The position numbers were made by a program, and so were the translations under genes. A stretch of DNA of 61,201 nucleotides from a virus, in the IMG/VR virus record IMGVR_UViG_3300009790_000010, positions 1 to 61,201 of that record; one strand, given 5' to 3'. Below the pieces are notes generated by a model. That model did not search any database, was not told where the DNA came from, and saw only the letters and a program-made list of their open reading frames with translations. Every line of letters starts with the position of its first letter. Position 1 is the stretch's first letter. This document shows, in pieces, positions 42,797 to 61,201 of this stretch.

Positions 42797-45652
42797 ATGG
42801 CATCATATCTCGATAACATACCTACCTTTAATGAATATGTAGAGCAACGTCCTCAGGATGATATGCTCAAGGTTGGTCTGTTCAAACAACAAGCATATAA
42901 TGAGGGAGTAAAGAAGATTCAAGACAGTATAGATAATATTGCTGGACTGGATATTATTCAACCAGAACAAAGAGAATATCTTCAATCTAAGCTTAATGCT
43001 TTAGGAGGACAGCTCAATAGTATTGCAGCGTCCGATTTCTCAAACTTCCAACTTGTTAACTCAGTTGATGGTATGACTAAGCAATTAGTTAATGATCCTA
43101 TTATTTTAAATGCTGTAGCTTCTACAGGTTATTATAGAAAACAAAAAGAAAACCAAGAAAAAATTAATGCTGAAGGAAAAGGTTCAGCTTCTAATGATGC
43201 TTTCTTCAATCAACAAGTGGAAGACTGGATGGGGGGAGGTTTAGATGCTCAGTTTACAGGACAGTATACACCATATGTAGACTTTAACAAAGAAGCTAGA
43301 GAGATAATAAAAGGTTTAGTCAAAACAGAAGATGTTCAAGAGATAGCTTTTGAACAAGATGCAAATGGTAAATGGAGAATAATGGATGCTATAACACGTG
43401 TAGAAGTAGAGGGGGTTAGTGCAGATAGAATTCAAACAGCATTACAAGCTGGTCTTACACCAGAAGCAAAAAGACAAATGAGCATAGATGGATTATATCA
43501 ATACTCAGGAGTAAGTCCAGAACAATTTTCTCAAGACTTAAATACCAGATACAGTGATACATTTGATGCATTAGTACAACAAAGAGACGAACTAGTAGGA
43601 CTAAAGAAATTAGCAAAATCACCAGAGGAAAAAGATAATATTCAATTGCAAATAGATGCTCTTGATAATCAAACTAAATATCTACAATCAGAATATGACA
43701 GTATATCTGAAGGATTTGCAAATGGAGATGTAGAAGCTGCAAAAGCTAATTTGTATGCAACTGATTGGATGAAGAACTTTAGTAATGCATATTCCTATAG
43801 AAATGTATCAGAAACTTACAAAACTAATCCATGGTTCGAAGCTGACTTTAAGAAAAAGAAAGAACTTCAAAGACAACAAGAATGGTTAGCTACTTATAAT
43901 CAAAGAGAAGCACATCATCGAGAGGATTATAATCTTAAAGTACAAGAGATGCAGTTTAATGGTGTATGGGGAGTACCAGTGGGTGTAACTGACTTTACAG
44001 AAAAAGACAATGATGAAGTTGCTGCCATCTATAAAAGTAACTTAGCATCTAAAAAGAAAGAGTTAAATGACTGGAAGTCTATGATGGAATCCAAATATGG
44101 AATAAATGATATGACTCTTAATGAAGCAGATGCAGCTGATAAAACAAATAGATTATTTAATAGAGCTGACTTCACAGCAGATTTAGCTCAATATAATCTA
44201 CTTAAGAAAGATCTTGAGAGATCAGAACTTCTGGATTACACTTTAGCAGTAGAAGCAGATCTACAATTTCCTACACAGTATTTAGAGAATGGAGAAGTTA
44301 ATCCACGTTTCTTATTACAGTATGCAGATGATAGTAATAATAAAAAAGTTTATATACCTAGTGGCGGTGTAAATAATGAAACCGGTGATGGTTATATATA
44401 TCCAACTCAAACAATGGAGGATGGTGGCACTATGATGCCTAACACAGATTATGCACAGTTAGCTACAGCCTTTTCATACTTTGATAATAACTATTGGGTA
44501 TCAGATGGTTCTGGTTCACTATACGATCCTACTGTACCTTATTCAGACTACACACCATCACGGCTGATTCCAGAAGGTGACATGGGAACTTATCCTGAAG
44601 ATCTTGATCCATCAATGAGAGGTATGTATGATATATGGAGAGCTGGAAGGTTAGATGATGCAGAGGCTTTCCAATGGAATGATGACTTTACACGATTAGT
44701 TGGAGACCATCGAATAGGAGATAAATACGAGAACTTATATACACAAGTAAAACAGTTCCAAGAGAAGACATATAGAAGAGATGAGATTAATGCTGATTTA
44801 AGATCTAAATATATAGCCGATGGTATAAAGGAAAATAATATTATGTCTCAGAGTATGAGATATGAAGTACCATTAGCTAATGCAGCTCAGAAAGCTAGAA
44901 TGAAATCTAAACTTCTAGCTCTTTACCAAGAAGCAGGAAGTGATGGGGGTGGTGAAGGAGGTATACTGCTCGATAATATAGATAACTTTCCAAACCTTAT
45001 AGATGGATTAGATGCAGCTAGTGTTGTAACAGATGGAGAAGATGATTTTAGATTAACTGTTAGAGGAGGAGGTCTTCAAGGATCACAATATACAGAAGAA
45101 ATAAATCTAACCAAAGCTCAATTTGATATGTTATTTCCAGGTGGACAGTATTATCAGTCCCCAGCCATACAAACATTTAATGAGGAGTATTTACCTCTGA
45201 TGTTGAAATCAAGAACCCCATTGATGGAAAGTTATCCTAACGGACCAGATAGCTTTCCAGTATACTATAGAGAACCACAATCATTCTGGACTACTGCTAC
45301 AGATAGTTCATATGAGACTAAAATTGGTAATGCTGGTATACCTCAATCTCATTTTATGGAAGTACTTTACTATGGTGTAGAAGGAAATTTAGTAAGTGAG
45401 GGAAATCCTAAAGAGACAAATCGTTTTAGATTATTTTTAAATATAACCGACCCTATTACTGGTATCGTACATGAAAATATTATGATGGTGCCTCCTTCTG
45501 GAGGTGCTGGTATAGTAGATAAATCTAAAGTAGCATTTACTATTTCACAATTAAACGATCAATTTATATGGCAATTATTAAATCCGAACACCCCATACAC
45601 TCGTAGTTCTCAAAACCAATTAATACAAGCTGCTAACACACCTAAAAAGTAA
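42797..45652 (+). CDS. Large probable cargo protein, 951 aa
   Basis: Long soluble protein dominated by charged helices and coiled coils: Gln/Glu/Lys-rich regions (LKKLAKSPEEKDNIQLQIDALDN-type segments, KKKKELQRQQEWLATYNQREAHH), with beta-rich parts in the last third. No membrane segment, signal peptide or enzyme motif is seen. The N-terminal pattern (MASYLDNIPTFNEYVEQRPQDD) is typical of the crAss-like family of large internal proteins adjacent to the virion polymerase. The gene has its own promoter and ends in TAATG, sharing a base with the polymerase start. A role as a packaged protein ejected with DNA is inferred. Confidence 0.8.
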   Translation: MASYLDNIPTFNEYVEQRPQDDMLKVGLFKQQAYNEGVKKIQDSIDNIAGLDIIQPEQREYLQSKLNALGGQLNSIAASDFSNFQLVNSVDGMTKQLVNDPIILNAVASTGYYRKQKENQEKINAEGKGSASNDAFFNQQVEDWMGGGLDAQFTGQYTPYVDFNKEAREIIKGLVKTEDVQEIAFEQDANGKWRIMDAITRVEVEGVSADRIQTALQAGLTPEAKRQMSIDGLYQYSGVSPEQFSQDLNTRYSDTFDALVQQRDELVGLKKLAKSPEEKDNIQLQIDALDNQTKYLQSEYDSISEGFANGDVEAAKANLYATDWMKNFSNAYSYRNVSETYKTNPWFEADFKKKKELQRQQEWLATYNQREAHHREDYNLKVQEMQFNGVWGVPVGVTDFTEKDNDEVAAIYKSNLASKKKELNDWKSMMESKYGINDMTLNEADAADKTNRLFNRADFTADLAQYNLLKKDLERSELLDYTLAVEADLQFPTQYLENGEVNPRFLLQYADDSNNKKVYIPSGGVNNETGDGYIYPTQTMEDGGTMMPNTDYAQLATAFSYFDNNYWVSDGSGSLYDPTVPYSDYTPSRLIPEGDMGTYPEDLDPSMRGMYDIWRAGRLDDAEAFQWNDDFTRLVGDHRIGDKYENLYTQVKQFQEKTYRRDEINADLRSKYIADGIKENNIMSQSMRYEVPLANAAQKARMKSKLLALYQEAGSDGGGEGGILLDNIDNFPNLIDGLDAASVVTDGEDDFRLTVRGGGLQGSQYTEEINLTKAQFDMLFPGGQYYQSPAIQTFNEEYLPLMLKSRTPLMESYPNGPDSFPVYYREPQSFWTTATDSSYETKIGNAGIPQSHFMEVLYYGVEGNLVSEGNPKETNRFRLFLNITDPITGIVHENIMMVPPSGGAGIVDKSKVAFTISQLNDQFIWQLLNPNTPYTRSSQNQLIQAANTPKK

Positions 45653-48600
45653 TGAAGAAAAGCCCTAAGAACGCCCAAAAAGGTAAATCAGTTTCCTCTG
45701 GTATACCTAACTTACCACCAGTGATGTCTGGAGGAAGTGCTCCTTTACAAAATCAAAAGTATATGGAAGAAGCGTTTGGTGGATACCAACAACCTTCACG
45801 TTCATTAATGGGTGGTATGAATTTAAGTCCTGACTTCCAACCTATGGGTGTTCCTAGAGTAGCAGGTAATTTAAACTTTGAAAACTTCATGCAAAATGCA
45901 GCTACTCCAGGTGATTATGGAGCAGGTGGAAGAGTTATTACAGAAAATGAAATGGATGGCTCAGGAAGATATGATTACTTTATGCCTTCTAGTATAGGTG
46001 TTAATAATGAAGAGGTAGCTGCTGCTAATCAAGGATGGGGAGAGAAAGCTGTTAACGGTTTATTAAAAGGTACATATCTTGTAGGAAGTACTTTTCTACA
46101 AGGTACCGTAGGAGCAGTTAACGGTCTTTATCAATGGGCTGATACTGGACAGTTTAGTTCTTTCTATGATAATGAATTTAATCGAACATTAGATGAAGGT
46201 AGAGCATATTTAGAAGATGCATTACCTAATTATTATTCTCAAGCTGAACTAGATGCAGATTGGTATTCTCCTACCTATTGGATGACAGGAAATTTTCTAT
46301 GGGATGGTATTGTCAAGAACTTAGGTTTTGCTGTAGGTGCATACTATACAGGTGCAGCTTACGCTGGTGTCCTGAGAGCACTTAGTTTAAGTGCTCGTAT
46401 GGTAGTAACTGGACAACCTAATGCAGCAGCAACATTGGCTGCTACAGAAAAAGGATTATCTGCAGCTAATAGAGGAGCTGGTGTATATGGTGAACTTGAG
46501 AGTCTTTCAAAAAACTTCTTAAGTCAATATAATGTTTTAAATCCAGCTCAGAGAATCGCAGTAGCAGGACTATCTACACAAGGTGAAGCTGGTATTGAAG
46601 CACTCCATAACAGTAATGAATTTAGACAAACCTTAATAGACGAATATAAACAGGAGTATGGAGTAATGCCTGGTGGACAAGCGATGGCGGATATAAATGC
46701 TGCAGTAGAAGGTGCAGGTAATGTTTCTTTCTGGGCTAACGTAGGTGTTCTAACTGCAAGTAACTATATTATGTTCCCTCGTATTGCACGTAATGGTTAT
46801 ACATCACAAAAGGCAGCTCTTAATAATACCATAAAGAGAACTAATGGTATAGTTGCTAGAGGAGGAACGTTTGCTCCAGATGTTAAGAAAATTCATCCTT
46901 ATCTTCGTACACTAAATAACATCCGACCTTATTTATTTTCCACTACAGAAGCACTAGAAGAAGTTTCTCAATATGGAATTAGTGTTACAACAAAAGATTA
47001 TTACAATAAACAATATAATAACGAAGCAACCAGTTGGATAAGTTCTATGGGGGTAGGACTAACAGACGGTGTGTTTAGTAATGAAGGTGCTAAGAATGCA
47101 TTAATTGGTGGTATCTCTGGTAGAATAATGACTATTAGAGGAATGAACAGAGAGCGTATAGGTAGAAATACTAATACAGCTAATGCAATTAGGGAACTTA
47201 ATGATTCTCCAACACTATCTAAATTTACTCAAGAGACAATTTATTCAGTTAACAGAGCAGGAGTATTAGGAGATGAGTTAAATGCGGCAGTAGAAAGAGG
47301 AGATGAATATGCTTACAAGAGTTTAGAAAGTGACTTTATAATAAACTATCTAACTCCTAGAATAAAGTATGGTAGATATGATTTAGTAAAATATGATATA
47401 AAAACTCTTAGAGATGTAGCTGTAGGAGACTTTACACAGCTACAAGCTGAAGGAAAAATTGCACCTGGAGATACAAAACAAAGATACATTGATCGTTTAG
47501 ATAATCTAAGTGATGTGGCTGATCAAGTTAACACTTTATATCAAGCACTTAATTTAAGATATGGAGGTATCCAAAGACTAAACAAGACTACTGGTAAAAT
47601 GGAAACAGTGTACGATGAAGGTGTTATAAATCAAATGATATATGCAGCTGCTACAGTACAAAACTTTGACAAACGTCTACAAGATGTAATAAGTGAATTT
47701 AATACAGCTTTACCAGGAGTAGACTTTGATACTATGATAAAAGATATTCTTGCTGGAGATGGAGCAAGTCTATCTAATGCAATGGATCTTATAGAGGCAC
47801 AGAACATACTATCAGATACTAAAAATAGTCAAAAACAAGCTCTAGAAGATCTTGCTAAGATGGTTATACAGAGAGAACAATTTCTTACAGAGTATGACAA
47901 GATTAAAGACAATCCTGACATGTATTCCTCTGCTCCTACCGGAGTAGAACCAGATGATGAGGAGGAGGAAACAGATATTGAAGATAGTTCTGTTGTAGTA
48001 ACTACTAAAGATGGAGAAAGAACATTAGATATAGGAGGGAGATATTATGTAGGAAGAGGAGTAGACTTTAAGGGAGATACAGCAATAGACCAACCTATTG
48101 TAATATCTGAGATTGAAGTACTAGGAAAGAATGAAGATGGGACTATAAAAATAAAAGATAACAATGGACTGGTTAAAGATATTTCACAGGAAGAGTTACT
48201 TAATTTAAAAGTAGCACCACTTTCCAGTCTAGAGAATGATAAAGCTGCAGCATATTACTTTGAGAACAGAAATAAAGTATTTGAATTTAACTTACCTACT
48301 ACTCAAGGAGGTGCTCGTCAAGGTAGATTACAATACTCCGATGGAAAAATGTATTTTGTTTACAAGGACTCTAATGGAACTGTGCTTAGAAAGCAGATTA
48401 CAGGGAAGTTTTTTAAAGATGGAATTATTAAACCAGTAGGAGTTCTAAGTGAAAATCAAGGAAGAGCTAGTGAGGAATATTTATCTGATGATAACCTAGC
48501 ACAAGAACAAGAATCTTTAGCAGCGAGTAGAGAAGCTCGATTAGAGATTATGCGTGACTTAGGTATAGAATCTAAAAGAAGATTAGAAGAGATAAATAGA

Positions 48601-51600
48601 CAGATAGAGAAAGATAATAAAACTTTAGATCTAATTAAGAAAGACTTAGACGCTATAGCTTCTATGCAAGAGGGTGGAGAAACTATTAAGTTGACTTACT
48701 CCAAGGCATCAAAGAGCTTTACTAGAACAATCAATAGGCTCACTAAGATGCAGGCTGATACACAAAAACGTGTAGAGGAATTACAACTAGAGCAACAAGA
48801 AAATACCTTAAACGTAGAATACTTTGATACATTCACAAAAGACTTAGTAGATATACCTGGTAACAATGAAACATTCTTAAATGAATTAAAACAACAACTA
48901 AAGTTATTAGAAGACAATGGTAAGGCTGTAAACAAAGAGATTGCTGAGAACAAAAAACTTATAGATAAATTAATAGACGCTGCTAAATCTGCAGCTAAAT
49001 TACTAAAATCTGCTATCAAGTCTGGATATAAAGTAGGAGAAGACTTTACAATAGACATGGATCTTCTATTAAAAAAAGCTGCAAAAGGAGAAGACCTAGA
49101 ATCTACCTGGCCTTTGTTAAAACAAATGCTAGCAGACTTTAATCTTACAAATGACTTACTTAAAGAAGTTACCATATCAGAGAAGGCTGCATTTGAAGCC
49201 TTAGAAAAGACTGAAGAGTTAGAGAATCAACTCGATGCACTCAGACAAGAATACAAAGTAAAGAGAGAAATAGTAAATAGATTTCAACAGTATATAGATC
49301 AGGCTAATAAAGAAAGAGCAGAGCAAGATCAAATATCTAAAGATATAAAAACACAACAGGAACTTGAAAACAATAGAGATAAGTCTGTTGTTATAGAAGC
49401 TGTACCTAAAACTTTTGACCCTGTAGCTAAGAAGTCAAATGAAGTGATATCTAGGTCTACAATCCCTCTGGATGATATACAAAAAGATCCTACTGATGCA
49501 GTGATTAGAGCTAATGAGTTTGGTTTTAATCTTCCTACTATGGAGAGAAGGGATGAGATGCGTGGAGTGTATGTAACATCTAGCACTCAAAGTGAATTAC
49601 TACCTGGCGTTATAGAAAAGATGTTAGAGGGAGCACCAGAAGAGAACTTAGAAAACTTTAAGAAAACAGCTATAGCTATGGTTATAGTTGACACAGATGG
49701 TGATCTTGTAGGTAAAGATGGAGCAAAGATACCAGAAGGTGAAAATGTACTAGATAATGCTATCTATATGTTTATGCCTGAGAACGGATTCAAGTCTAAG
49801 TACTATGAAAATGGTAGCATGTTTAGAAATCCCGACTCTAATCAAGCTAAACAAATAGTAGAGGAGTATAAAGAGTGGAGATCAAATATTTTAAACAATC
49901 CATTAGGTGAACCTTTTACAATATCACCTTCCTTTGGTATTACTGAATCAACACCTTCTCCTGTTAGTGTTTGGGAAGCAGGATTAGTAGAAGAACAAGG
50001 TAGTATAAAAGACAAAGTTATCTACATTCCTACAAATAATAATACTTTTTCTTCAGAGAATGGATCTCAATCTTTTGAGCAACCTTTAGGTAGTGTATTT
50101 ATAAAAACATCTAATGGTTATGTGCAGGCACAAAATAGAAAACATACTCGTGAGGAAGCTAAAGCTATCTATGATGCTATTTTAACTTATGCCACAGAAC
50201 TATTTGCAAAAAGAAAAGGATCAGACTTAGCACAAAATGCATTAAAGTTTCTAAGAGGAGTTACTTATTGGGGTAAACCAAGTAATGCTGCAGGACAGAA
50301 CAGTGTATACTTTGAGTTTATTAAGACCAGTACGTTTAGTGGTGTGGAGATGTTTGAAAAAGCAGTTATAAACTTTGGAGTAGAGAATCAAAGAGATCCT
50401 ATAGACTTTAATGTAAGGAGTTTACAAGCTAACGAAGAGCTTATCATCACTACGTTGATGGATATGTATTCTAACATTAATAACTCCTATGTTAAATCTG
50501 ATGAGCCATTCTTTCAAATTAAAAGTATAGATGCTGGAGGTAATATAGAACAAGTAAAATGGAGAAACTATCAAGACTACCTTCTAGCTTCTCAAGACCC
50601 AAGTGGACAAACTAGATCTGCTTCTGATCTTCCTTTATATGTAAACATACAGCCTTCTAGAGATGTTCTCAATCCAGATGCTCCTAAGCAAATAAATAGG
50701 AGAGCTATATATCTTGTAGACACAAGTAGAGAAATAGATTTAAATGTAGAGGAAGAGGTTATGATTGTAGATCCTGCTGATGTTCCTGTACTAGACGGAA
50801 AGACAATTAATGTCTTTACTTCTGTTAATGGTAATAGATTAAATTATACAGTTAGTCCTAGTATTAATTCTCAAAACTACATGCAAGCTATTCAAATGCG
50901 TGCTGGTTTGGATTTTGAAAAGGTTAAAAAAGATCTTAGAGAAGCTAAAGGTATGACTAGCGAGAAAGCTAATCAAACAGTAAAGGCTGCTATATATAAC
51001 TATGTTAATCCTCTTATTGCTAAAGCAAAAAGAAATGATCAACAAGAGAAGGATATAAATGAAAAAGCATCTGCCCTTAATAAGAAACTAAACTTTACAA
51101 AGTTTAAAGAACAACCAAAACAACAAACTAGTGTTGAAAAATATCGAAACAAAGGAAAGGTAACTATTAAATCTAAAGTAAGGAAAGCTCCAAATGGAAC
51201 TACGTACAATGATTTATCAGTTAAACCAGATATGTCTATTGAAAATTCACATCAAGATGTTTTAAATGTCGTATTAGATATAGTTAATGAAGTATCTAAA
51301 ACACCTCATAAAACCAACATCTACGGAGGTATAGTAAGAGTATGGGAATCTTCCTATATTTGGGAACCTTTAGTATATTTAAATGACTATTTAAACGATG
51401 AAAGATGGGGTAGAACTATAGACGATTTTTTAAACATATTAGAAGCTGACGCATTAACTAAAAAAGCAATAAAAGATTCATTAGAAAATAGAACTCCTAT
51501 TCAACTAACACAACAAACTAGTAAAGAGGTAGTAGAAGATAATCAAGAGGCAGAACTCAAAAGAAGACTTAACAATGGAAGAGGTGGTAGTGATCCAGTG

Positions 51601-54600
51601 CTACGTGAGATTACTGATCGTGCTGTAAAAAGAATGTCTGATAAAAACTGGAATGAAGTTACCAGTTGGATGAAAACAAACCTACCTAGTGTTCCAGTAT
51701 TTAGAGTTAAGAATATTATAGAGAACGGAAACGGTAAACAAGCATGGGGTATGTTCCAAGATGCAGCTATGTATATCTATGAAAATGCAGAGGTGGGTAC
51801 AGCCTATCACGAAGCATTTGAAGCTGTGTATGGAATGTTCTTAGATAGTAAGGAGAAAGCTAATTTATATAATGAGTTTAAACAACGTAAAGGTACGTTT
51901 GTAGATAGACCTACAGGTAAAAATATAAAGTTCTCTGAGGCTACTCAAGACGAAATGAGAGAACACTTAGCAGAGGAGTTTAAAGACTATGTACAATATA
52001 ACCAAAAACCTTTTTACGTAAAGATATTTAAACAACTAAAAGATCTTATAACTAGTTGGTTTAGAAGTCCAGACTCTAGTAAGTTTACTAAAGAATTATT
52101 TGATAGAATAGGAGATGGATATTATGCTACACCTGGTCCTGCTCTCTTCATGGACATAGATACAGTAACCGTAACAGATGGAGTATTTAGTTTAGGAGGA
52201 AGGATAGGTGGTAAAGAGATGCGTGACATACTTCATCAAATGACCTATGATATGATCACTCCTCTGGTAAGTACCAAAAGAGACTTACTTAGTGGATTTA
52301 CACAAGATCTAACAGGGCTTTATGATAAGTTAAAAGACGGAGTTCAGAAAAAGATTGACCAACGTATATATCAATTAGAAGAGGATAGAAAAAATGAAGA
52401 CTACAATTCAGGAAGTATTCAGGATTATATAACTGTTCTACAAGAAAAGTACTTAACTCTAGGATCTGATGTAAATACCTTATGGCCTGAGATTATAGAA
52501 AAACATAAAGAGTTCTTGAGACAATTCTCTATCACCTTTGATGAGCAAGGTCAACTAGAACTTCAAGAGGTAAAATCAAACAAGGGATGGAATACGGATA
52601 TTACTCTTGTAGATAATTACAAACAAACTAATTCAGGATTCAGATTACTTCTTAGTACCATCCCTAGAGTACAAGTAAGCAGTGAGGGTAGTATAGCAGT
52701 ATCTCCTAGTAGTATAGGAGGAGTTCAGTTACTACCTCAGAGTCAAACTTATATAACTCTTCTATCTAAACTGGCTAGTGCAGTTAGTATAACAGACATG
52801 TTATCTAAACTTAGAGACTTAGCTTTAGAAGATATCAATTATGACAGTTTTTATAGACGTGTAGTAGGAGCTAAACCCGAACCTAATGTTATACCTAACT
52901 TAGATAATATAACACAAGATCATCAACTAGCTTTAATAACTACACTATGGAAAACATTTAACAAAGCTGGAAATAAGGTTCCAGTGGTAAATGTGTTAGA
53001 AGGTAATGAAGTTCAGGTAACTGAAGCAAGTGTTGCTCCAGCTGCTCGTCAGATAGCAAAAGAGTTTGTTAATAATATTATTACCCAATCTAGATCTGGC
53101 TCTGGTGCGTTTATAAATACAGATGGTATATTTAATCCTAATCCTGTTATATTAAAAAAGCCTATTGGAACAGTTTCTCAAAATCTTTCGTTCTTAAAAG
53201 CTATAGGTATAAATATAAGTAGAGGAGCTATTAATAATGCTGTTAATGGAGCTGCTATATTAAATGAAGCAGTAGGAGGAATTAAATCAAGTATTCTTCA
53301 ATCAAGAAACATACGTATATTTAATTCTAAGGCCTTAGATATGGCAGGTAGACTTATGGAATTAGCTATTGTAAAATCTGCTTTCCAAAATCCTGAGGTA
53401 AGAAGTACCTTTACTAATGTAGAAGGACAAAAGGCTCAAACATATATAGCTCCAAACTCGTTCTCTAAATTACATGACTGGATAAAAAGTATTTCTAATA
53501 TATCTGAATTAGCTGGTACACCTTTTTCTTATTTACTTACAGATGTATTTGCTCAAGGATCTAGTACCCTCAAGAGAATATTCGACATAGATGGAAATAA
53601 GTTACCAGGATCTAATGAGTTATTATCTTCAGTAACTGCAGGAGGTATAATAAATCAAGCTAATGGTAGAAATACTAAATCTACTCAACTATCTATTCCT
53701 CAAAGATTAACACAAGAGCTAAACTTAAATATAAATGGAATATATCTAAATTTAGTTCCTGGTGATTCTTCATTAGAATGGGCATTAGAGATGGGTAATC
53801 CAGTTACAGAAAGTGATCTGCGAACTGATAAAGCTGTGTTTAATTCTATTATGAAAGACTTCTTTATAGCAGAGGTGAATTTAGCTAAAGAACAACGTGA
53901 TAATCTAGAGTTAATAGACGGTAGAAAGTCTACAGATTTAAGATTCTTTAAAGGTATATTGACAGAGGAAACAAATAAGGAAATAGAAAAACAAATCTTA
54001 GATCCTTTACAGGATGCAGAAACTATATACGACAGTCAGGAAGCAGCAATTAAAACTCAAACATTTGAGTATGTATTAAAGAATACTTCTAAAACTATAG
54101 CTGAATTAGTAAAAAATGGAATTGTCCAAGAACAATATGATAATCTAGGTAATCCAGCTGGATATACAATAAACAATGTTCAAGGGATGAGAACTATACA
54201 ACCTGAAGGTCTCACTACCGTTATGGCAACAATGACTGCTAATTATATAATTGCGAATATAGACCAACACAAATTAGTATACGGTGACCCTTATCAATAT
54301 AAGGATGAATTAAAGCGTACTAAAAGTTTCTTATCTCCTAGACAGCCTGTAATTAATAGTTCTCCTGAATGGAACAATAAAGCTAATGACTTATATAACA
54401 GAGACTACACACCTGAAACAATAGGTTATACAGACTTTACAAAAGATTATTTCTCTACCGTCACATATGGAGATGTCTTAGGTGTATCGGAATTATATGA
54501 TGGTAATTTTGAAGAGACAGATGGTGGGGGATTAATAACAGAAAAAGCAGATCGTAACTTCCAACTTAGAACAGGTACATGGAATGCAGATAAAGAAAGA

Positions 54601-57600
54601 CAATATAGATATAATGTTGCATGGGAAAAGAGAGACAAAAAACAAAAGCTAACTCGTAGAGAACGAGATATTCTTAAGGAAGGTAACCCTCGAGTAAATA
54701 TAGTTGCTTTAAAACCTATAGTATCAGGAGCTAGACTTGGATATGAAGGAGGAGACAACTTTATAAACGAAACAGTACTAGATAAATTTGCATTGTTCCC
54801 AATCTCTTATAGAATAATGAAGGAACTTGATCCTGATTCTAATATGGTGAAGCTATATAATAAGATGCAGGATGAAAATATAGACTACATAGTATTTAAA
54901 AGTGGTAGAAAGGTAGGAGCTGGACCAGTACATGCACCTTATGTAGATGGAGAGTTTAATGATGCTCCATATAGCAATACGGTAAACGTACCTTTCTCTA
55001 TAATGGGTCTTCAATCAGATGTACCTTCTAAAACTAGTGGTACAGTTACTAGAGGTAGTCAGGTTACTAAATTGGTAACTTTAGATCTTTTAGATAATAG
55101 TGTACCTTATGATTATGACGGTACATTCGATGAATGGAATAAACTGAGTGAAGAACAGAAGATAGCTGATTCTGCAATCTATAGAGAAATAGATAGAAAC
55201 ACAAGGTTAGTTAATGCTCTTACAGAAGAAGCAGGTAAACAAGTGTTGAATAGACTGGGTATAGAAAGAACAAAAGATGGATTCCAAGTAAAAGACTTAA
55301 GTAAAATAGCTACTACTCTACGTGAAGAAATGTTTAAAAGAGAATCAAATGATAATCTTAGTCAGGCTATTACAGGTTTCTTAGAAGGGCAATCTGTACT
55401 AGAATCTACCCCTGCGTATAATGAGGTAAGAAATATTTTATACTCTATTGTACAGAAAAACATAGTAAGACCTAAAATATCTGGAGGAGAGAAAGTACAA
55501 ATGCCTTCTGCTTATTTAGAAAGCAAACGTGCAGAATTTAATGAAGAATTAAATGGATACACCTCAGATATACTTAAGTTCTATGAGAATGAAGATGGAG
55601 AAAGAGTAATGGAAATTATGGTGGGACGTTGGTTTAATAGTCCAATGTCTGATACAGAGCTACTAGAATATCTTAACAATACAGAAGAAGGACAACAAGC
55701 TTTACGTGGTGTTGCGTATCGTATACCTACACAGAAACAAAACTCTATAGATGTTATAAAGATAAAACAATTCTTACCTCAAGAGTATTCAGATCAAGTT
55801 ATTGTACCGTCAGCTATAGTCAAGAAAGTAGGATCGGATTTTGATATTGATAAATTAAATCTATTCCTAAAAAACATGCGTGTGATAGGTGGTAGGCTAA
55901 AACCTGTACCTTTCTATGGTATAGGAGAGGATGCTAAAGTAAAGATCACAGAAGACTATGATAAGGGAGAGTTTATATCACCTGCTCAAGAAAAAGAACT
56001 CAATCAAATTGTAAGAGAGATGGATAGAGTAGAGCAATCATTACAGAAAGCTCAAGATAGCGATTCAGCTGATCCAGGTAATTTAATTAATCTACTTAAA
56101 GAGGTTGGTTTATTTGATAGTGAAGAAACTACTTTAGACTTTGTTGATGAAATAAGAGATAAAGGAGCTAAGAAAACATTTATCGATAAGATATATAAAG
56201 AGTCCCTAGAGAATGAGTATATAAACTCTATGGAAAATTTAATCACCTTACCAGAAAACTTTGAGAGACTAATTCTTCCAAATAATGCTGATCAAGCTAA
56301 AGCCCTTGCAGCTGAAATTGTAGAGAGAAAAGGACAAACATCTTTCAATTCTAATAATATAGACAATTTATTAGATAGACCATTTATGCAGAGATTGAGA
56401 AATGCATTTGTAGCAGGTAAGAAGGCTATTGGTATTGCAGCTATTGGTCAAACTAGTTTAGCTCTAGCACAACGTATAACATTATTTCTTCCTACAAATT
56501 ACATTTCTTTCAAGAACAAGAATACAGTGAACATAGAAGGTGAAGAGATGATTAGTTTTTCTGGTAGAAAAAATGCAGCTGATAATTTTATATCCGATAT
56601 AATGGGACAGTTTATGGATGGTTATGTAGACATTGCAAAAGATCCATGGATATATGCCCTAGGTGCTACACGTAGAAATGTATCTACCTGGTTGTATTTA
56701 CTCAGAGCTGGTGTACCTTTAAGAGATGTAGCATTCTTTATTAATCAACCAGCTATACAAGAGTATCTACAAACTATAGAGAATCAAGGAGGAATAACAA
56801 TAGTAAGAGAGGATATTAAAGATGAAATTTTAAAAAGTATAAATGTTCAAGGAATAAATTTCACAGGTAGTACTATTCCGGCACCTAACTATCTAAGAAA
56901 GTATATAGGTAAAAGTTTAGAAAGCTTAAGTGTTCAAGAGAAGAAGGTTCAAGGATATATGTTAGAGGAGTTTGTAAAATATGCAGAGCAATCGAAAATG
57001 TTATTTGATTTAAACAGTGGTACCAACTGGGATGTAACTGTATTTAATGATCCTTATATAGTGTTTAAGAAAACAGTACAACAAATGCAGGCCAAGGATA
57101 TTGAGATAAAAGCTTATGTAAATGGTCAAGTAATAGATGCACCAGATGCTACTATGGAGTCTACATTTTTAGCTACTACAGCGGATACAGTGGTGAATGC
57201 AAGAAGAGGAATATCCACTGCTTTAACTGCCGATCAACCAGCTGTAACAAGTGTACTACACAAGGTGCTTCTTCCATATGTCAATACTTCAGATTACAAC
57301 TTTGTAAGAATAGCTAGAGCAGCCACTAATGCTTTGTTTGACTATGCTGTACAGACAAATCAACAATTAAATACATTACTAAAAGAATATCTGACAGGAA
57401 AGACAAACGTTGCAAGAGAGGTTATAAATTTTGTTAATGATGTAAAACAAGATGTTGATCATCCTTTATATAACAATGAGGTTATAAATTTATTTACAAC
57501 TAATCCTTCCAGAAGAGTAGGAGTAGTTCCTATTAATCTGACACTTAAAAGTAACGATAGAAAAGTATATGATCAAAATGCTATCATCTATGGCTTTGAA

Positions 57601-58512
57601 CAACTTAAAGAATATCTATCTTCAGACAGCAATCTTTATAATAAAATTGTACTAACATCAATATTACAATCTGGATTAAATAACAGTAATCTATCATTTA
57701 CCTCCTTAATACCTTATGAAGATTTTCAAAAAGTGTATAATAAAACCTTGTCTAGGTTAGATAATAATGGTAACTTAGAAGACTTCTATACACTGGGTAT
57801 GTTTGAAAGAAATGCTTGGGCTCTAAGTAACGGTCCTGTAATTTCAATGAAGGAGAAAAATGTTAAAACTGCAAGAGGACTAATTAGAAATATTGGTATG
57901 AAATTCATGCCAACAGAAGTTAGTATAGCAATTGAAACTAATGATATTCCTCAACTACTAAAAGTTCCTACTTATATGCGTAGTGCTAACGAAAGGTTTA
58001 TTATGTATAGTTGGACTAATGAAAGTATTTCTGATACCGAAAGAAGGGAAATGGCTTCTAGAGGAGACTTTTCATTTATAAACAGAGGTCTTTTTGAAAT
58101 GGTAACTAATGATAATGGTACTCCATATATTTATGAGACTAAATATAGAGGGAAGGTATATAAAAATGTAATCTATAAACATGTAAATGCATTAGGTAAT
58201 GGTTTCAGAGCTGTAGAATATTATGATGGGGCACAACCTTCAGTTTTTGATAATGGTACTTTAAAAGCTATAGAGAAAAGAAATGAAGAAATTATTTATT
58301 ACTTTGAGGCAGCTCAGTCTAATTTATCTAGTAACAGTGGATACAGAGCAGCAACAAATGTAAGACAATGGGAAGTAAGAGGTGATAAGTTCTTAGCCTT
58401 CCGACCTTTTCAAGAGTTTTCAGTAGAAGAAATAAAAGATAACGCACCTCTCTTAACTCAGTTAGGATATTCTGAAGAACAAATAGGTGCAATTAATAAA
58501 AGACTTTGCTAA
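45652..58512 (+). CDS. Giant virion RNA polymerase polyprotein-like protein, 4286 aa
   Basis: The largest gene in the window (12.9 kb). The polymerase core lies at about 3010-3410. It contains the AYRIPTQ segment (3355-3361) and the catalytic D3396-F-D3398-I-D3400 loop, the metal-binding motif of the beta'-like double-psi barrel. Upstream are beta-like elements with conserved Lys (KPIVSG near 3020, FKSGRKVG near 3083, RGSQVTK 3134-3140). Such single-chain two-barrel polymerases are packaged in crAss-like virions and transcribe early genes after ejection. The N-terminal 3000 residues include an acidic linker (near 765), a long coiled coil (about 965-1235), and H2053-E-A-F-E2057, which resembles HExxH with the last His replaced. 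It is translationally coupled to both neighbours. Confidence 0.93.
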   Translation: MKKSPKNAQKGKSVSSGIPNLPPVMSGGSAPLQNQKYMEEAFGGYQQPSRSLMGGMNLSPDFQPMGVPRVAGNLNFENFMQNAATPGDYGAGGRVITENEMDGSGRYDYFMPSSIGVNNEEVAAANQGWGEKAVNGLLKGTYLVGSTFLQGTVGAVNGLYQWADTGQFSSFYDNEFNRTLDEGRAYLEDALPNYYSQAELDADWYSPTYWMTGNFLWDGIVKNLGFAVGAYYTGAAYAGVLRALSLSARMVVTGQPNAAATLAATEKGLSAANRGAGVYGELESLSKNFLSQYNVLNPAQRIAVAGLSTQGEAGIEALHNSNEFRQTLIDEYKQEYGVMPGGQAMADINAAVEGAGNVSFWANVGVLTASNYIMFPRIARNGYTSQKAALNNTIKRTNGIVARGGTFAPDVKKIHPYLRTLNNIRPYLFSTTEALEEVSQYGISVTTKDYYNKQYNNEATSWISSMGVGLTDGVFSNEGAKNALIGGISGRIMTIRGMNRERIGRNTNTANAIRELNDSPTLSKFTQETIYSVNRAGVLGDELNAAVERGDEYAYKSLESDFIINYLTPRIKYGRYDLVKYDIKTLRDVAVGDFTQLQAEGKIAPGDTKQRYIDRLDNLSDVADQVNTLYQALNLRYGGIQRLNKTTGKMETVYDEGVINQMIYAAATVQNFDKRLQDVISEFNTALPGVDFDTMIKDILAGDGASLSNAMDLIEAQNILSDTKNSQKQALEDLAKMVIQREQFLTEYDKIKDNPDMYSSAPTGVEPDDEEEETDIEDSSVVVTTKDGERTLDIGGRYYVGRGVDFKGDTAIDQPIVISEIEVLGKNEDGTIKIKDNNGLVKDISQEELLNLKVAPLSSLENDKAAAYYFENRNKVFEFNLPTTQGGARQGRLQYSDGKMYFVYKDSNGTVLRKQITGKFFKDGIIKPVGVLSENQGRASEEYLSDDNLAQEQESLAASREARLEIMRDLGIESKRRLEEINRQIEKDNKTLDLIKKDLDAIASMQEGGETIKLTYSKASKSFTRTINRLTKMQADTQKRVEELQLEQQENTLNVEYFDTFTKDLVDIPGNNETFLNELKQQLKLLEDNGKAVNKEIAENKKLIDKLIDAAKSAAKLLKSAIKSGYKVGEDFTIDMDLLLKKAAKGEDLESTWPLLKQMLADFNLTNDLLKEVTISEKAAFEALEKTEELENQLDALRQEYKVKREIVNRFQQYIDQANKERAEQDQISKDIKTQQELENNRDKSVVIEAVPKTFDPVAKKSNEVISRSTIPLDDIQKDPTDAVIRANEFGFNLPTMERRDEMRGVYVTSSTQSELLPGVIEKMLEGAPEENLENFKKTAIAMVIVDTDGDLVGKDGAKIPEGENVLDNAIYMFMPENGFKSKYYENGSMFRNPDSNQAKQIVEEYKEWRSNILNNPLGEPFTISPSFGITESTPSPVSVWEAGLVEEQGSIKDKVIYIPTNNNTFSSENGSQSFEQPLGSVFIKTSNGYVQAQNRKHTREEAKAIYDAILTYATELFAKRKGSDLAQNALKFLRGVTYWGKPSNAAGQNSVYFEFIKTSTFSGVEMFEKAVINFGVENQRDPIDFNVRSLQANEELIITTLMDMYSNINNSYVKSDEPFFQIKSIDAGGNIEQVKWRNYQDYLLASQDPSGQTRSASDLPLYVNIQPSRDVLNPDAPKQINRRAIYLVDTSREIDLNVEEEVMIVDPADVPVLDGKTINVFTSVNGNRLNYTVSPSINSQNYMQAIQMRAGLDFEKVKKDLREAKGMTSEKANQTVKAAIYNYVNPLIAKAKRNDQQEKDINEKASALNKKLNFTKFKEQPKQQTSVEKYRNKGKVTIKSKVRKAPNGTTYNDLSVKPDMSIENSHQDVLNVVLDIVNEVSKTPHKTNIYGGIVRVWESSYIWEPLVYLNDYLNDERWGRTIDDFLNILEADALTKKAIKDSLENRTPIQLTQQTSKEVVEDNQEAELKRRLNNGRGGSDPVLREITDRAVKRMSDKNWNEVTSWMKTNLPSVPVFRVKNIIENGNGKQAWGMFQDAAMYIYENAEVGTAYHEAFEAVYGMFLDSKEKANLYNEFKQRKGTFVDRPTGKNIKFSEATQDEMREHLAEEFKDYVQYNQKPFYVKIFKQLKDLITSWFRSPDSSKFTKELFDRIGDGYYATPGPALFMDIDTVTVTDGVFSLGGRIGGKEMRDILHQMTYDMITPLVSTKRDLLSGFTQDLTGLYDKLKDGVQKKIDQRIYQLEEDRKNEDYNSGSIQDYITVLQEKYLTLGSDVNTLWPEIIEKHKEFLRQFSITFDEQGQLELQEVKSNKGWNTDITLVDNYKQTNSGFRLLLSTIPRVQVSSEGSIAVSPSSIGGVQLLPQSQTYITLLSKLASAVSITDMLSKLRDLALEDINYDSFYRRVVGAKPEPNVIPNLDNITQDHQLALITTLWKTFNKAGNKVPVVNVLEGNEVQVTEASVAPAARQIAKEFVNNIITQSRSGSGAFINTDGIFNPNPVILKKPIGTVSQNLSFLKAIGINISRGAINNAVNGAAILNEAVGGIKSSILQSRNIRIFNSKALDMAGRLMELAIVKSAFQNPEVRSTFTNVEGQKAQTYIAPNSFSKLHDWIKSISNISELAGTPFSYLLTDVFAQGSSTLKRIFDIDGNKLPGSNELLSSVTAGGIINQANGRNTKSTQLSIPQRLTQELNLNINGIYLNLVPGDSSLEWALEMGNPVTESDLRTDKAVFNSIMKDFFIAEVNLAKEQRDNLELIDGRKSTDLRFFKGILTEETNKEIEKQILDPLQDAETIYDSQEAAIKTQTFEYVLKNTSKTIAELVKNGIVQEQYDNLGNPAGYTINNVQGMRTIQPEGLTTVMATMTANYIIANIDQHKLVYGDPYQYKDELKRTKSFLSPRQPVINSSPEWNNKANDLYNRDYTPETIGYTDFTKDYFSTVTYGDVLGVSELYDGNFEETDGGGLITEKADRNFQLRTGTWNADKERQYRYNVAWEKRDKKQKLTRRERDILKEGNPRVNIVALKPIVSGARLGYEGGDNFINETVLDKFALFPISYRIMKELDPDSNMVKLYNKMQDENIDYIVFKSGRKVGAGPVHAPYVDGEFNDAPYSNTVNVPFSIMGLQSDVPSKTSGTVTRGSQVTKLVTLDLLDNSVPYDYDGTFDEWNKLSEEQKIADSAIYREIDRNTRLVNALTEEAGKQVLNRLGIERTKDGFQVKDLSKIATTLREEMFKRESNDNLSQAITGFLEGQSVLESTPAYNEVRNILYSIVQKNIVRPKISGGEKVQMPSAYLESKRAEFNEELNGYTSDILKFYENEDGERVMEIMVGRWFNSPMSDTELLEYLNNTEEGQQALRGVAYRIPTQKQNSIDVIKIKQFLPQEYSDQVIVPSAIVKKVGSDFDIDKLNLFLKNMRVIGGRLKPVPFYGIGEDAKVKITEDYDKGEFISPAQEKELNQIVREMDRVEQSLQKAQDSDSADPGNLINLLKEVGLFDSEETTLDFVDEIRDKGAKKTFIDKIYKESLENEYINSMENLITLPENFERLILPNNADQAKALAAEIVERKGQTSFNSNNIDNLLDRPFMQRLRNAFVAGKKAIGIAAIGQTSLALAQRITLFLPTNYISFKNKNTVNIEGEEMISFSGRKNAADNFISDIMGQFMDGYVDIAKDPWIYALGATRRNVSTWLYLLRAGVPLRDVAFFINQPAIQEYLQTIENQGGITIVREDIKDEILKSINVQGINFTGSTIPAPNYLRKYIGKSLESLSVQEKKVQGYMLEEFVKYAEQSKMLFDLNSGTNWDVTVFNDPYIVFKKTVQQMQAKDIEIKAYVNGQVIDAPDATMESTFLATTADTVVNARRGISTALTADQPAVTSVLHKVLLPYVNTSDYNFVRIARAATNALFDYAVQTNQQLNTLLKEYLTGKTNVAREVINFVNDVKQDVDHPLYNNEVINLFTTNPSRRVGVVPINLTLKSNDRKVYDQNAIIYGFEQLKEYLSSDSNLYNKIVLTSILQSGLNNSNLSFTSLIPYEDFQKVYNKTLSRLDNNGNLEDFYTLGMFERNAWALSNGPVISMKEKNVKTARGLIRNIGMKFMPTEVSIAIETNDIPQLLKVPTYMRSANERFIMYSWTNESISDTERREMASRGDFSFINRGLFEMVTNDNGTPYIYETKYRGKVYKNVIYKHVNALGNGFRAVEYYDGAQPSVFDNGTLKAIEKRNEEIIYYFEAAQSNLSSNSGYRAATNVRQWEVRGDKFLAFRPFQEFSVEEIKDNAPLLTQLGYSEEQIGAINKRLC

Positions 58513-61201
58513 TGGCGATATGTCCTAACATAAATAGTCCACAATGGAAAGAGCTAGTTAAAGCTCAAGGTGAAGAGAAAGCATACTTCCTATGGAATAT
58601 GTTTGATGGTAATGTGCCTGGAGAGTATACTAACACTGTACCAGTAGAGAGTAATATTTCTAAAGTAAAAGAGCTTATAGCTAAGATGGGTGTTAACTTA
58701 ACTGATCTACAAACCTATGCATCAGAAAATCCTGACATGGATATTAGAGGAGCAAACTCTATTGCAGATGCTGTAGGTAAACTTATTGCAGTTAGTGAAG
58801 GAGCAACTCAAGAAGATATAACAGAGGAGATGGTACACATTGCCACTCAAATATTAGAACAAAAGAATCCTGAGTTAGTTACAGAAATGATATCTAAGAT
58901 AGGTGGTTTTAAAATATATAATGAAACTTTAGAAAAGTATAGAGAAATACCAGCTTATCAACTACCAGATGGAAGACCAAATATAAGAAAGATAAAGAAA
59001 GAAGCAGCTGATAAACTTATAGCATATATTGTAGGCCAACAGTTATCTGATGTTGAAGCTTCTGATACAGTAGTAGAACCAGAAGAGTTAACAGAACAAG
59101 ATAGATCTTTATTTAAAAGAATATGGGATGCTATAACTGGCTGGTTTAGAGGCGTTTACGCAGAATCTAATGTAGATATATTTCAAAAGATTGCTGGTAT
59201 AATTACAACAGAAGGAGTAGAAGGAGAACTATTAGATGGTACTCCTAGAGAACTATACTTTACACTTACGGATCCTCAAAAGAAAATACAGGATCGTCTT
59301 CTTAATACTAAAAAGAATATAAGAAAGATAGAAAGTAATGAAGCAATAAATCCTTTACTTCAAGATGAAGAAAATGGTAATAGTTTCTATGAGGTAAAGC
59401 AGGGAGATGAGTATGTAAGAGTAAAGAATAGAGTAACAGATAGAGTAAAGCAGTGGTACAGACAAAGATTTCGAGGTGGAATGGAATTTACCGAACAAGA
59501 GAAGATAGATAATAATGTTAAGAGAGAACTAGGAGTTGAATTTCATGATATGTTTGAACAGATACATGCTAGATTCTTTAATCCTGATGGAACTAGAAGA
59601 CAGATACCTGGTCAAAGAATGTACATAGCTGACAGACAGAGAGCTGAAGTTCACACTAAATTAGAAAAATACTATACAGATTTAATTGCAAGTTTTTCTA
59701 AGAATGGAAGAAATCCTCTAGTGTTTTCTGAAGTAATGGTATATGATCCTACTAACGATGAAGCAGGTACCATAGATCTTCTTATAGTAGAACAAGACGG
59801 AAAGACACATATATATGATTGGAAGTTCATAAGTATGGGTAAGAACACTCAAGATGTAGCTTGGTATAAACAAGGAGCATTTAATGAACAACTTAAAACA
59901 TATCGTGCTATACTACAAAATGTCTATGGTGTAAAGAAGGTAGGAAAGACCAGAGCTGTACCTATTGCACTTAACTTAAAAAGAGAAAACTTTCAGGATC
60001 AAACTTCTGAGCTTATGTTAACAAGTATAGCTATAGGTTCTGTAGTTCCCAAGAAAGGAGAAGAGACTCCTTTATATCTTACAGTTGTTCCAGTAACAGA
60101 CGAGAGTACTAATATACCAGGATTAGATCAACTTTTAACAAAACTTAATAAGTTATATGATGTTATATCAGGTGAGACTGCAACCGATGAGGCATCTAAA
60201 AGTTCTAAAAAAGATCGTTTAAACATTATAAAGAAAGCAGTTAGACTTACACAAGCTAACTTAAATGTTAAGGGAATTATAGATGCAATATCAGTAATGA
60301 AAAATGAAGGAGATTCTATTGTAGCTGAGTATATTACCACTTATGAAGGTGTTAAACCAAGTGAAAATACTTTTGATAACCAACAATTAAATGAATTTTC
60401 TGATAGAATGAATGACTACTTAGATCAGTCTATAGCATTTGAGAAAATAAATGTAGAAATTGCACCGTTAATTCCATTTCTAAATATTGCTGAGTCCCAG
60501 AAACAACAGGTTCAAGATGAGATAAATAGAAAGCAACAAGAGATAATGGCCAATAGAGAAGAGGTTCAAAGAATTACAGGAGAGTTTGCTGACAAATTTA
60601 TTGGGAATAAATATAATGTTACAGGACTTTTAAATCCTACAAAAATTATAAAGAGTTTATCTTTCAGCAGACTATTTACACGTCTATCAGATTTACCTTT
60701 ACCTTCTTTAAGAATACTATCAAGGTCAGCTAGAAGAGCACAAGATGATGCAGATAGTGAGTCTAGAGGTTATGTAGAAAGGTTAATGGCTATTAGAAAA
60801 AAGCTAGTAGATAGAGGGGGTAATCTTAAAGAAATAGTAAGAAAAATATATCGACAAGAAGAGGGATCTTTAGTAAATCAGTTAATATATAAATATCAGA
60901 GAGAGTTTTATAATAAAATGAGAGACAATGCTGCTGAGGGGAATAGAAGTAAACAGTGGTTATTTGACAATGTAGATATAGAAGCATATAAAAAAGAAGC
61001 TATTCCTATTATGCAACGTGAGATTGCTAGGCATAAGTCTCTGTATGCTACTGAAGATCTAAGGAGTTTAAGAGACAAAGCTATTCAAGATACTAGACAG
61101 AAGTATGATATCTCTAGAAGAGATTTTAATGGTTGGGCTAACGAGATACTAGCAAAACATCCTAAAGATAAATGGTTATCTCAAGAGTACAAGGATCTCA
61201 C
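58512..61201 (+). CDS. Partial virion-type protein with PD-(D/E)xK nuclease core, at least 896 aa
   Basis: The ATG shares a base with the polymerase stop (TAATG), and the frame stays open to the right edge of the window, so the C-terminus is missing. Residues about 340-470 fit the RecB/Cas4-like PD-(D/E)xK nuclease layout: H345, E407 (FSEVMVYD), D422 (GTIDLLIV), D436-W-K438 (IYDWKF) and Q460-x3-Y464. The family cuts DNA using a metal ion. The first 200 residues look like the helical linker regions of the giant polymerase protein, and the rest is coiled-coil rich and basic. By position it is a packaged partner of the virion polymerase, perhaps acting on host DNA at entry. The nuclease call is a motif reading and unproven. 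Confidence 0.82.
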   Translation, partial: MAICPNINSPQWKELVKAQGEEKAYFLWNMFDGNVPGEYTNTVPVESNISKVKELIAKMGVNLTDLQTYASENPDMDIRGANSIADAVGKLIAVSEGATQEDITEEMVHIATQILEQKNPELVTEMISKIGGFKIYNETLEKYREIPAYQLPDGRPNIRKIKKEAADKLIAYIVGQQLSDVEASDTVVEPEELTEQDRSLFKRIWDAITGWFRGVYAESNVDIFQKIAGIITTEGVEGELLDGTPRELYFTLTDPQKKIQDRLLNTKKNIRKIESNEAINPLLQDEENGNSFYEVKQGDEYVRVKNRVTDRVKQWYRQRFRGGMEFTEQEKIDNNVKRELGVEFHDMFEQIHARFFNPDGTRRQIPGQRMYIADRQRAEVHTKLEKYYTDLIASFSKNGRNPLVFSEVMVYDPTNDEAGTIDLLIVEQDGKTHIYDWKFISMGKNTQDVAWYKQGAFNEQLKTYRAILQNVYGVKKVGKTRAVPIALNLKRENFQDQTSELMLTSIAIGSVVPKKGEETPLYLTVVPVTDESTNIPGLDQLLTKLNKLYDVISGETATDEASKSSKKDRLNIIKKAVRLTQANLNVKGIIDAISVMKNEGDSIVAEYITTYEGVKPSENTFDNQQLNEFSDRMNDYLDQSIAFEKINVEIAPLIPFLNIAESQKQQVQDEINRKQQEIMANREEVQRITGEFADKFIGNKYNVTGLLNPTKIIKSLSFSRLFTRLSDLPLPSLRILSRSARRAQDDADSESRGYVERLMAIRKKLVDRGGNLKEIVRKIYRQEEGSLVNQLIYKYQREFYNKMRDNAAEGNRSKQWLFDNVDIEAYKKEAIPIMQREIARHKSLYATEDLRSLRDKAIQDTRQKYDISRRDFNGWANEILAKHPKDKWLSQEYKDL

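What the first reader, a model, noticed from the sequence alone, without database searches (positions are those of the whole stretch)
58512..61201. RecB/Cas4-like PD-(D/E)xK nuclease core next to the virion RNA polymerase
E407, D422, D436-x-K438 and Q460-x3-Y464 fit the fold. The gene is translationally coupled to the polymerase, so the nuclease may be co-packaged and delivered at entry, where it could attack host DNA or process the incoming genome.
Basis: partly seen in the sequence, partly recalled or inferred. Interest (0 to 1): 0.65.

Follow-up and report, generated by a model that had tools for sequence, protein, structure and literature searches.

The report
Crass-like phage cargo protein carries nuclease
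A crAss-like (Crassvirales) phage has a genuine RecB-type DNA-cutting domain built into a large protein whose relatives are packed in the virus particle beside the viral RNA polymerase, so it is probably injected at infection; such nuclease domains were already reported in this virus group, but what they cut is unknown.

Summary
The ORF at 58512 (TAATG overlap with the giant RNAP ORF) encodes a RecB-family PD-(D/E)xK domain at residues about 298-531. Pfam PDDEXK_1 scores above its cut-off, PHROG exonuclease profiles match, and an AlphaFold model of the domain (pLDDT 88) matches MGME1, AddAB, RecB, RecE and Cas4 (VIA Z up to 10). H345, D422, D436, K438 and Q460 are invariant in 56/56 sequences that cover the domain; the upstream Glu is always present. 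No conserved cysteines, so it is not an Fe-S (Cas4/AddB) type. The window is a crAss-like phage contig. Its gene is cut at the contig end (full length in a 97% relative: 1625 aa) and is orthologous to crAss001 gp49 and phi14:2 gp76, both detected in virions. gp49 lacks the domain; crAss001 carries one in another virion cargo protein, gp47. Some relatives also carry an ART-PolyVal domain in the same chain, so these look like polyvalent, injected effector proteins. Yutin et al. 2021 already reported PDDEXK domains in crAss-like transcription proteins, so this is a new member of a known kind. Delivery is well supported by inference; the target (host DNA, incoming genome, rival DNA) is unresolved.

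The parts
58512..61201 (+). RNAP-associated cargo protein gene (gp49-type), 3' truncated by the contig end; 896 of about 1625 aa
   Evidence: full length from L002 97% identical; orthology to crAss001 gp49 / phi14:2 gp76
59403..60104 (+). RecB-family PD-(D/E)xK nuclease domain, residues about 298-531
   Evidence: Pfam PDDEXK_1 above cut-off, PHROG exonucleases, AF2 model pLDDT 88, pTM 0.87, VIA Z 10.0 MGME1 / 9.9 AddAB
59544..59558 (+). Motif I: H345-x3-E349
   Evidence: H345 56/56, E349 46 of 56
59730..59732 (+). E407, acidic residue before the GxxD strand
   Evidence: present in 56/56, shifted by a few residues in one subgroup
59775..59777 (+). D422 of the GTID motif, metal ligand by analogy with the superfamily
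   Evidence: 56/56
59817..59825 (+). D436-W-K438, the (D/E)xK motif
   Evidence: 56/56
59889..59903 (+). Q460-x3-Y464, the RecB-family QxxxY motif
   Evidence: Q 56/56, Y 54 with 2 Q
58824..58838 (+). E105-E106-x2-H109, zincin-helix-like motif in the N-terminal domain; HExxH in some distant orthologues
   Evidence: 57/57; HExxH in phi14:2 gp76, cr114_1, cr1_1, cr4_1
58510..58514 (+). TAATG: stop of the RNAP ORF overlaps the start of this gene by one base
   Evidence: same overlap in 14 of 53 relatives, short gaps in nearly all others
45652..58512 (+). Giant virion RNA polymerase ORF (4286 aa) with the DFDID catalytic motif at residue 3396
   Evidence: DFDxD ORF upstream of the gene in 53/53 loci

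Best explanation
The gene encodes the RNAP-associated cargo protein of a crAss-like phage (orthologue of crAss001 gp49 / phi14:2 gp76) with a RecB-type PD-(D/E)xK DNA nuclease domain between its N-terminal zincin-like part and its C-terminal part. Shown: the domain, its catalytic residues and their conservation, purifying selection, and orthology to proteins detected in virions. Inferred: the protein is packaged with the giant RNAP, extruded through the tail partly unfolded and refolds in the host, where the metal-dependent nuclease cuts DNA early in infection. Its most likely role is that of one effector module of a polyvalent, injected protein: attack on non-phage DNA (host chromosome, plasmids or defence intermediates). 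I put the target at about 0.45 for host or foreign DNA, 0.3 for trimming or processing the incoming genome, and the rest other.
For: Nuclease; purifying selection on the domain, dN/dS 0.03-0.33 in eight pairs and 0.05 for window vs L002. Cargo: a full-length profile built from relatives hits crAss001 gp49, phi14:2 gp76, cr114_1, cr108_1, cr1_1 and cr4_1 proteins in the same position. phi14:2 gp076-gp078 are annotated from MS/MS proteomics; crAss001 gp47, gp49 and gp50 were detected in virions (PMC10172136). A related nuclease domain sits in crAss001 gp47 (phrog_298 E 1e-6; family profile E 1e-5) and in that protein across Steigviridae. Effector theme: ART-PolyVal in the same protein in cr1_1, cr4_1, L054 and L056, a module named for injected polyvalent proteins (PMC5512222). 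Optional placement (in the gp49-type protein here, gp47-type in crAss001, undetected in phi14:2, cr114_1, cr118_1) suits an exchangeable effector better than a part of the polymerase.
Against: No biochemical or proteomic data for this protein. The virion evidence is by orthology, and the orthologues seen in virions (gp49, gp76) lack a detectable domain. A nuclease packed beside the genome must be held inactive, and nothing here shows how. In crAss001 gp47 the motif-I His and upstream Glu appear changed, so that copy may be less active or inactive. Polyvalent effectors are only predicted to act on host targets. In 15 relatives no second RecB-type domain was found with two family profiles, which leaves room for a replication or repair role.
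Confidence: 0.7

Rival explanations
1. The nuclease processes the phage's own genome on entry: it trims or resects DNA ends so the RNAP can load or the genome can circularise or recombine.
For: Fused to a protein that travels with the RNAP; RecB-family QxxxY nucleases commonly act on DNA ends; cr118_1, where no nuclease was detected, instead has a RecD/UvrD-like helicase at the end of its giant RNAP ORF, also a DNA-handling enzyme.
Against: The domain is optional and changes its host protein between lineages, unlike a core entry step; phi14:2 has a virion RNAP and no detectable domain.
Confidence: 0.25
2. The protein acts in the producing cell, in replication, recombination or packaging, and its presence in virions is incidental or absent.
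For: Late transcription of structural and cargo genes is known for crassviruses (PMC10136315); no second RecB-type nuclease found by two profiles in 15 relatives.
Against: Gene order places it in the cargo/transcription block; orthologues are virion proteins; gut crassviruses carry separate replication-block exonucleases annotated as PD-(D/E)xK or Cas4-like.
Confidence: 0.15
3. The domain is catalytically dead and serves only as a DNA-binding or structural module.
For: Crassvirus cargo proteins diverge fast; the crAss001 gp47 copy seems to have lost two motif residues.
Against: In the window's clade the catalytic residues are invariant in 56 sequences with low dN/dS.
Confidence: 0.07

Closest known systems
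PDDEXK domain in large transcription-associated proteins of crAss-like phages (Yutin et al. 2021, PMC7886860)
   Same: Same virus group, same gene block, same superfamily of nuclease inside a giant protein next to the RNAP
   Different: That report covers human-gut genomes and its text gives no residues or protein identity (figures not readable here); here the host protein is the gp49-type one, in a clade found as IMG/VR contigs
crAss001 gp47 and gp49 (RNAP-associated virion cargo; PMC10172136)
   Same: gp49 is the orthologue of this protein; gp47 carries a related nuclease domain; both detected in virions
   Different: gp49 lacks the nuclease; in gp47 the domain sits in another protein and two motif residues differ
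Polyvalent proteins (Iyer et al. 2017, PMC5512222)
   Same: Large multidomain phage proteins predicted to be injected with DNA; the ART-PolyVal module occurs in this family and a zincin-like motif is present
   Different: A search of that paper's text for crAss, RecB and Cas4 found nothing; no ART was detected in the window's own protein
RecB/AddA nuclease domain and MGME1
   Same: Predicted fold and motif order (H, E, GxxD, DxK, QxxxY)
   Different: No helicase attached; sequence identity about 12-16% in the structural alignments
Cas4, AddB, Dna2 (Fe-S RecB-family nucleases)
   Same: Core fold
   Different: No conserved cysteines, so no Fe-S cluster expected

Membership tests
RecB-like PD-(D/E)xK nuclease superfamily | Profile match to the superfamily | tested here: met
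   PDDEXK_1 22.7 bits, cut-off 22; PHROG exonucleases
RecB-like PD-(D/E)xK nuclease superfamily | Fold match to solved members | tested here: met
   MGME1 Z 10.0 (rmsd 4.2, 165 aligned), AddAB Z 9.9 (rmsd 5.9, 161 aligned), RecB, RecE, EXO5 follow; Foldseek best E 3.7e-4; predicted model, not a solved structure
RecB-like PD-(D/E)xK nuclease superfamily | Catalytic D and DxK plus QxxxY conserved in homologues | tested here: met
RecB-like PD-(D/E)xK nuclease superfamily | Metal-dependent nuclease activity | not testable with these tools
   needs a bench assay
Cas4 / AddB / Dna2 Fe-S nucleases | Four conserved cysteines for a 4Fe-4S cluster around the nuclease core | tested here: not met
   no column with more than 3 Cys in residues 290-560 of the alignment; the window has none in residues 300-500
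Crassvirales RNAP-associated cargo protein (gp49 type) | Sequence homology and position next to the DFDxD RNAP ORF | tested here: met
Crassvirales RNAP-associated cargo protein (gp49 type) | Present in virions | not testable with these tools
   inferred from phi14:2 and crAss001
Polyvalent proteins (Iyer 2017) | Several disparate enzymatic domains in one chain | tested here: inconclusive
   met in relatives with ART-PolyVal plus nuclease (L054, L056, cr1_1, cr4_1); in the window protein only the nuclease is certain, the zincin-like part is a motif
Polyvalent proteins (Iyer 2017) | Injected with the DNA | not testable with these tools
   inferred from cargo orthology

The most novel reading that the evidence does not exclude
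The RNAP-associated cargo of crassviruses is an exchangeable arsenal of injected effectors, in which a RecB-type nuclease, an ADP-ribosyltransferase and other modules move between co-packaged giant proteins, and the nuclease destroys host or rival DNA before the first phage gene is read.
Probability: 0.3. Interest if true: 0.7.

Novelty: new member of a known kind. Interest (0 to 1): 0.4.

Why it matters
Crassviruses are the most abundant viruses of the human gut, and the jobs of their giant cargo proteins apart from transcription are unknown. The comparison makes a testable claim about a cultured phage: crAss001 gp47, already detected in virions, should carry a RecB-type nuclease domain. It also links these cargo proteins to the polyvalent-protein theme of injected effectors, so that host takeover and counter-defence by the virion itself can be tested.

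Tried and rejected
DNA-level search of the phage collection found nothing. One scan of bacterial genome contigs found no relative. Sequence profile search of solved structures gave only noise, so the fold link rests on Pfam/PHROG and on predicted structure. Phi17:2, listed by the viral fold search, was checked: none of the eight proteins tested from the fetched stretch matched the family profile convincingly, and the whole record gave no match, so it is not used. Pfam found no named domain in the inserts of L003, L045 and L058. A Cas4 label was rejected for lack of cysteines. Chance occurrence of the motif was considered: the bare motif is not rare enough on its own.

Full report
What the window is. 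The window is a whole IMG/VR virus record of 61,201 bases. It carries the crAss-like structural block: terminase large subunit, portal and major head protein match PHROG families, a tail ring protein matches Pfam CrAss_Ring_2, and the portal is related to those of Crassvirales. The 4286-aa ORF at 45652-58512 contains the DFDID motif of the phage RNA polymerase. It belongs with the crAss-like phages; family placement was not attempted.

The observation. The motif alone is not strong: in shuffles of the same protein the core chain appears in 7.7% and the full chain in 0.26%. Profiles, however, are significant: PDDEXK_1 just above its curated cut-off, PHROG exonucleases at 1.6e-6 and 3.5e-5.

Homologues. 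Two scans of viral contigs gave 56 loci, one of them (L057) too short to reach the domain. The second scan used patterns outside the nuclease (the N-terminal GE..A stretch and the LTEEMVHI motif), so the seeds themselves did not select for the domain, although confirmation by tblastn against the window protein does favour close relatives. Every locus that reaches the domain has it, in an intact frame. H345, D422, D436, K438 and Q460 are invariant in 56/56 sequences, Y464 in 54, and the upstream Glu is present in all. dN/dS in the domain is 0.03-0.33 in eight pairs. The complete gene in the 97% relative L002 is 1625 aa.

Structure. AlphaFold2 on residues 241-560 with 45 sequences gave pLDDT 88 and pTM 0.87. 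Foldseek lists mainly PD-(D/E)xK nucleases at the top: MGME1 (E 3.7e-4), ACE1, Cas4, RecE, EXO5, AdnA. VIA-align gives MGME1 Z 10.0 (rmsd 4.2, 165 aligned), AddAB 9.9 (5.9, 161), Cas4 and RecB 8.2-8.6, RecE 8.1, against 6-7 for unrelated rows such as eIF3d. A first model of residues 46-565 gave the same picture. In the viral fold library the best matches include crAss-like proteins of cr108_1 and cr4_1. The absence of conserved cysteines argues against an Fe-S type.

Which protein it is. A profile of the full-length relatives hits cr108_1 gp_22608 (E about 1e-62), crAss001 gp49 (3e-10, four collinear stretches), cr114_1 (7e-9) and phi14:2 gp76 (2e-7), and cr1_1 and cr4_1 proteins; these E-values are for a very small target set. 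In crAss001 gp49 the stretch between profile positions 300 and 645 is reduced to about 60 residues, so the nuclease is missing there. A profile of the domain alone instead finds it in crAss001 gp47 at about 1731-1872 (E 1e-5), in the large protein of cr116_1, and more weakly in cr1_1 and cr4_1. PHROG exonuclease profiles support crAss001 gp47 (1e-6), cr1_1 (8e-13) and cr4_1 (2e-13), and Pfam supports cr116_1. tblastn with the gp47 region finds it in many Steigviridae-type records, including DAC15 and DAC17. In gp47 the motif-I His aligns with Asp and the upstream Glu is not evident, while GxxD, DxK and QxxxY remain. No domain was detected in phi14:2, cr114_1 or cr118_1, with the caveat that the profile is biased to the window's clade and missed crAss001 in a stricter search.

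Delivery. phi14:2 gp076, gp077 and gp078 are annotated as structural from MS/MS; its RefSeq record calls them RNA polymerase associated protein, catalytic RNA polymerase subunit and virion structural protein. crAss001 virions contain gp45, gp46, gp47, gp49 and gp50 by mass spectrometry (PMC10172136), and that paper proposes that cargo is extruded partly unfolded through the tail. So packaging of the window protein is a good inference, and at least one related nuclease domain lies in a protein known to be in virions.

Mechanism. Pfam ART-PolyVal is found in the same protein in cr1_1, cr4_1, L054 and L056. That family is named for polyvalent proteins: large proteins predicted to be injected with phage or plasmid DNA that combine unrelated activities (PMC5512222). 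The optional presence of the nuclease and its change of host protein suggest an exchangeable effector. I therefore prefer an early attack on non-phage DNA over processing of the phage's own genome, with modest confidence. How the enzyme is kept quiet inside the capsid is not explained; unfolding during passage and refolding in the host, or need for metal, are possible.

Known or new. Yutin et al. [quoted passage not shown] The find is a well-supported new member. The points I did not find in the papers searched (figures and supplements were not readable) are the placement in the gp49-type protein with full catalytic conservation, the contrast with gp47, and the link to polyvalent proteins.

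Noticed in passing
window 58824-58838 and relatives: EExxH motif (LTEEMVHIA) invariant in 57/57 relatives and present in crAss001 gp49, cr108_1 and cr118_1, while phi14:2, cr114_1, cr1_1 and cr4_1 have HExxH; a zincin-like helix with the first His replaced by Glu in several lineages, function unexplained.
   Followed up: partly
window 51808-51822: Giant RNAP ORF has HEAFE where crAss001 gp47, cr1_1, cr4_1 and cr118_1 have HEAFH.
   Followed up: no
L054 4852-11235; L056: ART-PolyVal domain (E 4e-16 and 7e-16) in the same protein as the nuclease.
   Followed up: partly
L003 8078-14752 (P0004): About 600 aa inserted after the N-terminal CPN motif, with a nucleotidyltransferase-like GS...DxD motif; Pfam finds no domain.
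   Followed up: partly
L058 9992-13264: About 580 aa extra between the N-terminal domain and the nuclease, no Pfam match.
   Followed up: partly
window 58512-58600 and relatives: N-terminal motif CPNxNxPxWKxLVxxxGExxAxxLW shared by many relatives, cr108_1 and cr114_1 (related forms in cr1_1, cr4_1, cr118_1); possibly a packaging signal.
   Followed up: no
L062 16381-31221 (cr118_1 gp14): Giant RNAP ORF ends in a RecD/UvrD-like helicase (AAA_30 E 2e-25, UvrD_C_2 E 5e-11).
   Followed up: no
L002 15372-18188; L003 14899-19611: Gene after the cargo gene encodes a long GTSGTSG-repeat protein, likely a fibre.
   Followed up: no
L005 and L064: Cargo and RNAP ORFs of cr114_1 and cr4_1 contain many in-frame TAG codons within the annotated genes, consistent with TAG recoding.
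   Followed up: no
window 24020-25264: Protein in the structural block matching a PHROG DNA repair exonuclease (phrog_704, E 4e-51; weak Pfam metallophosphoesterase).
   Followed up: no
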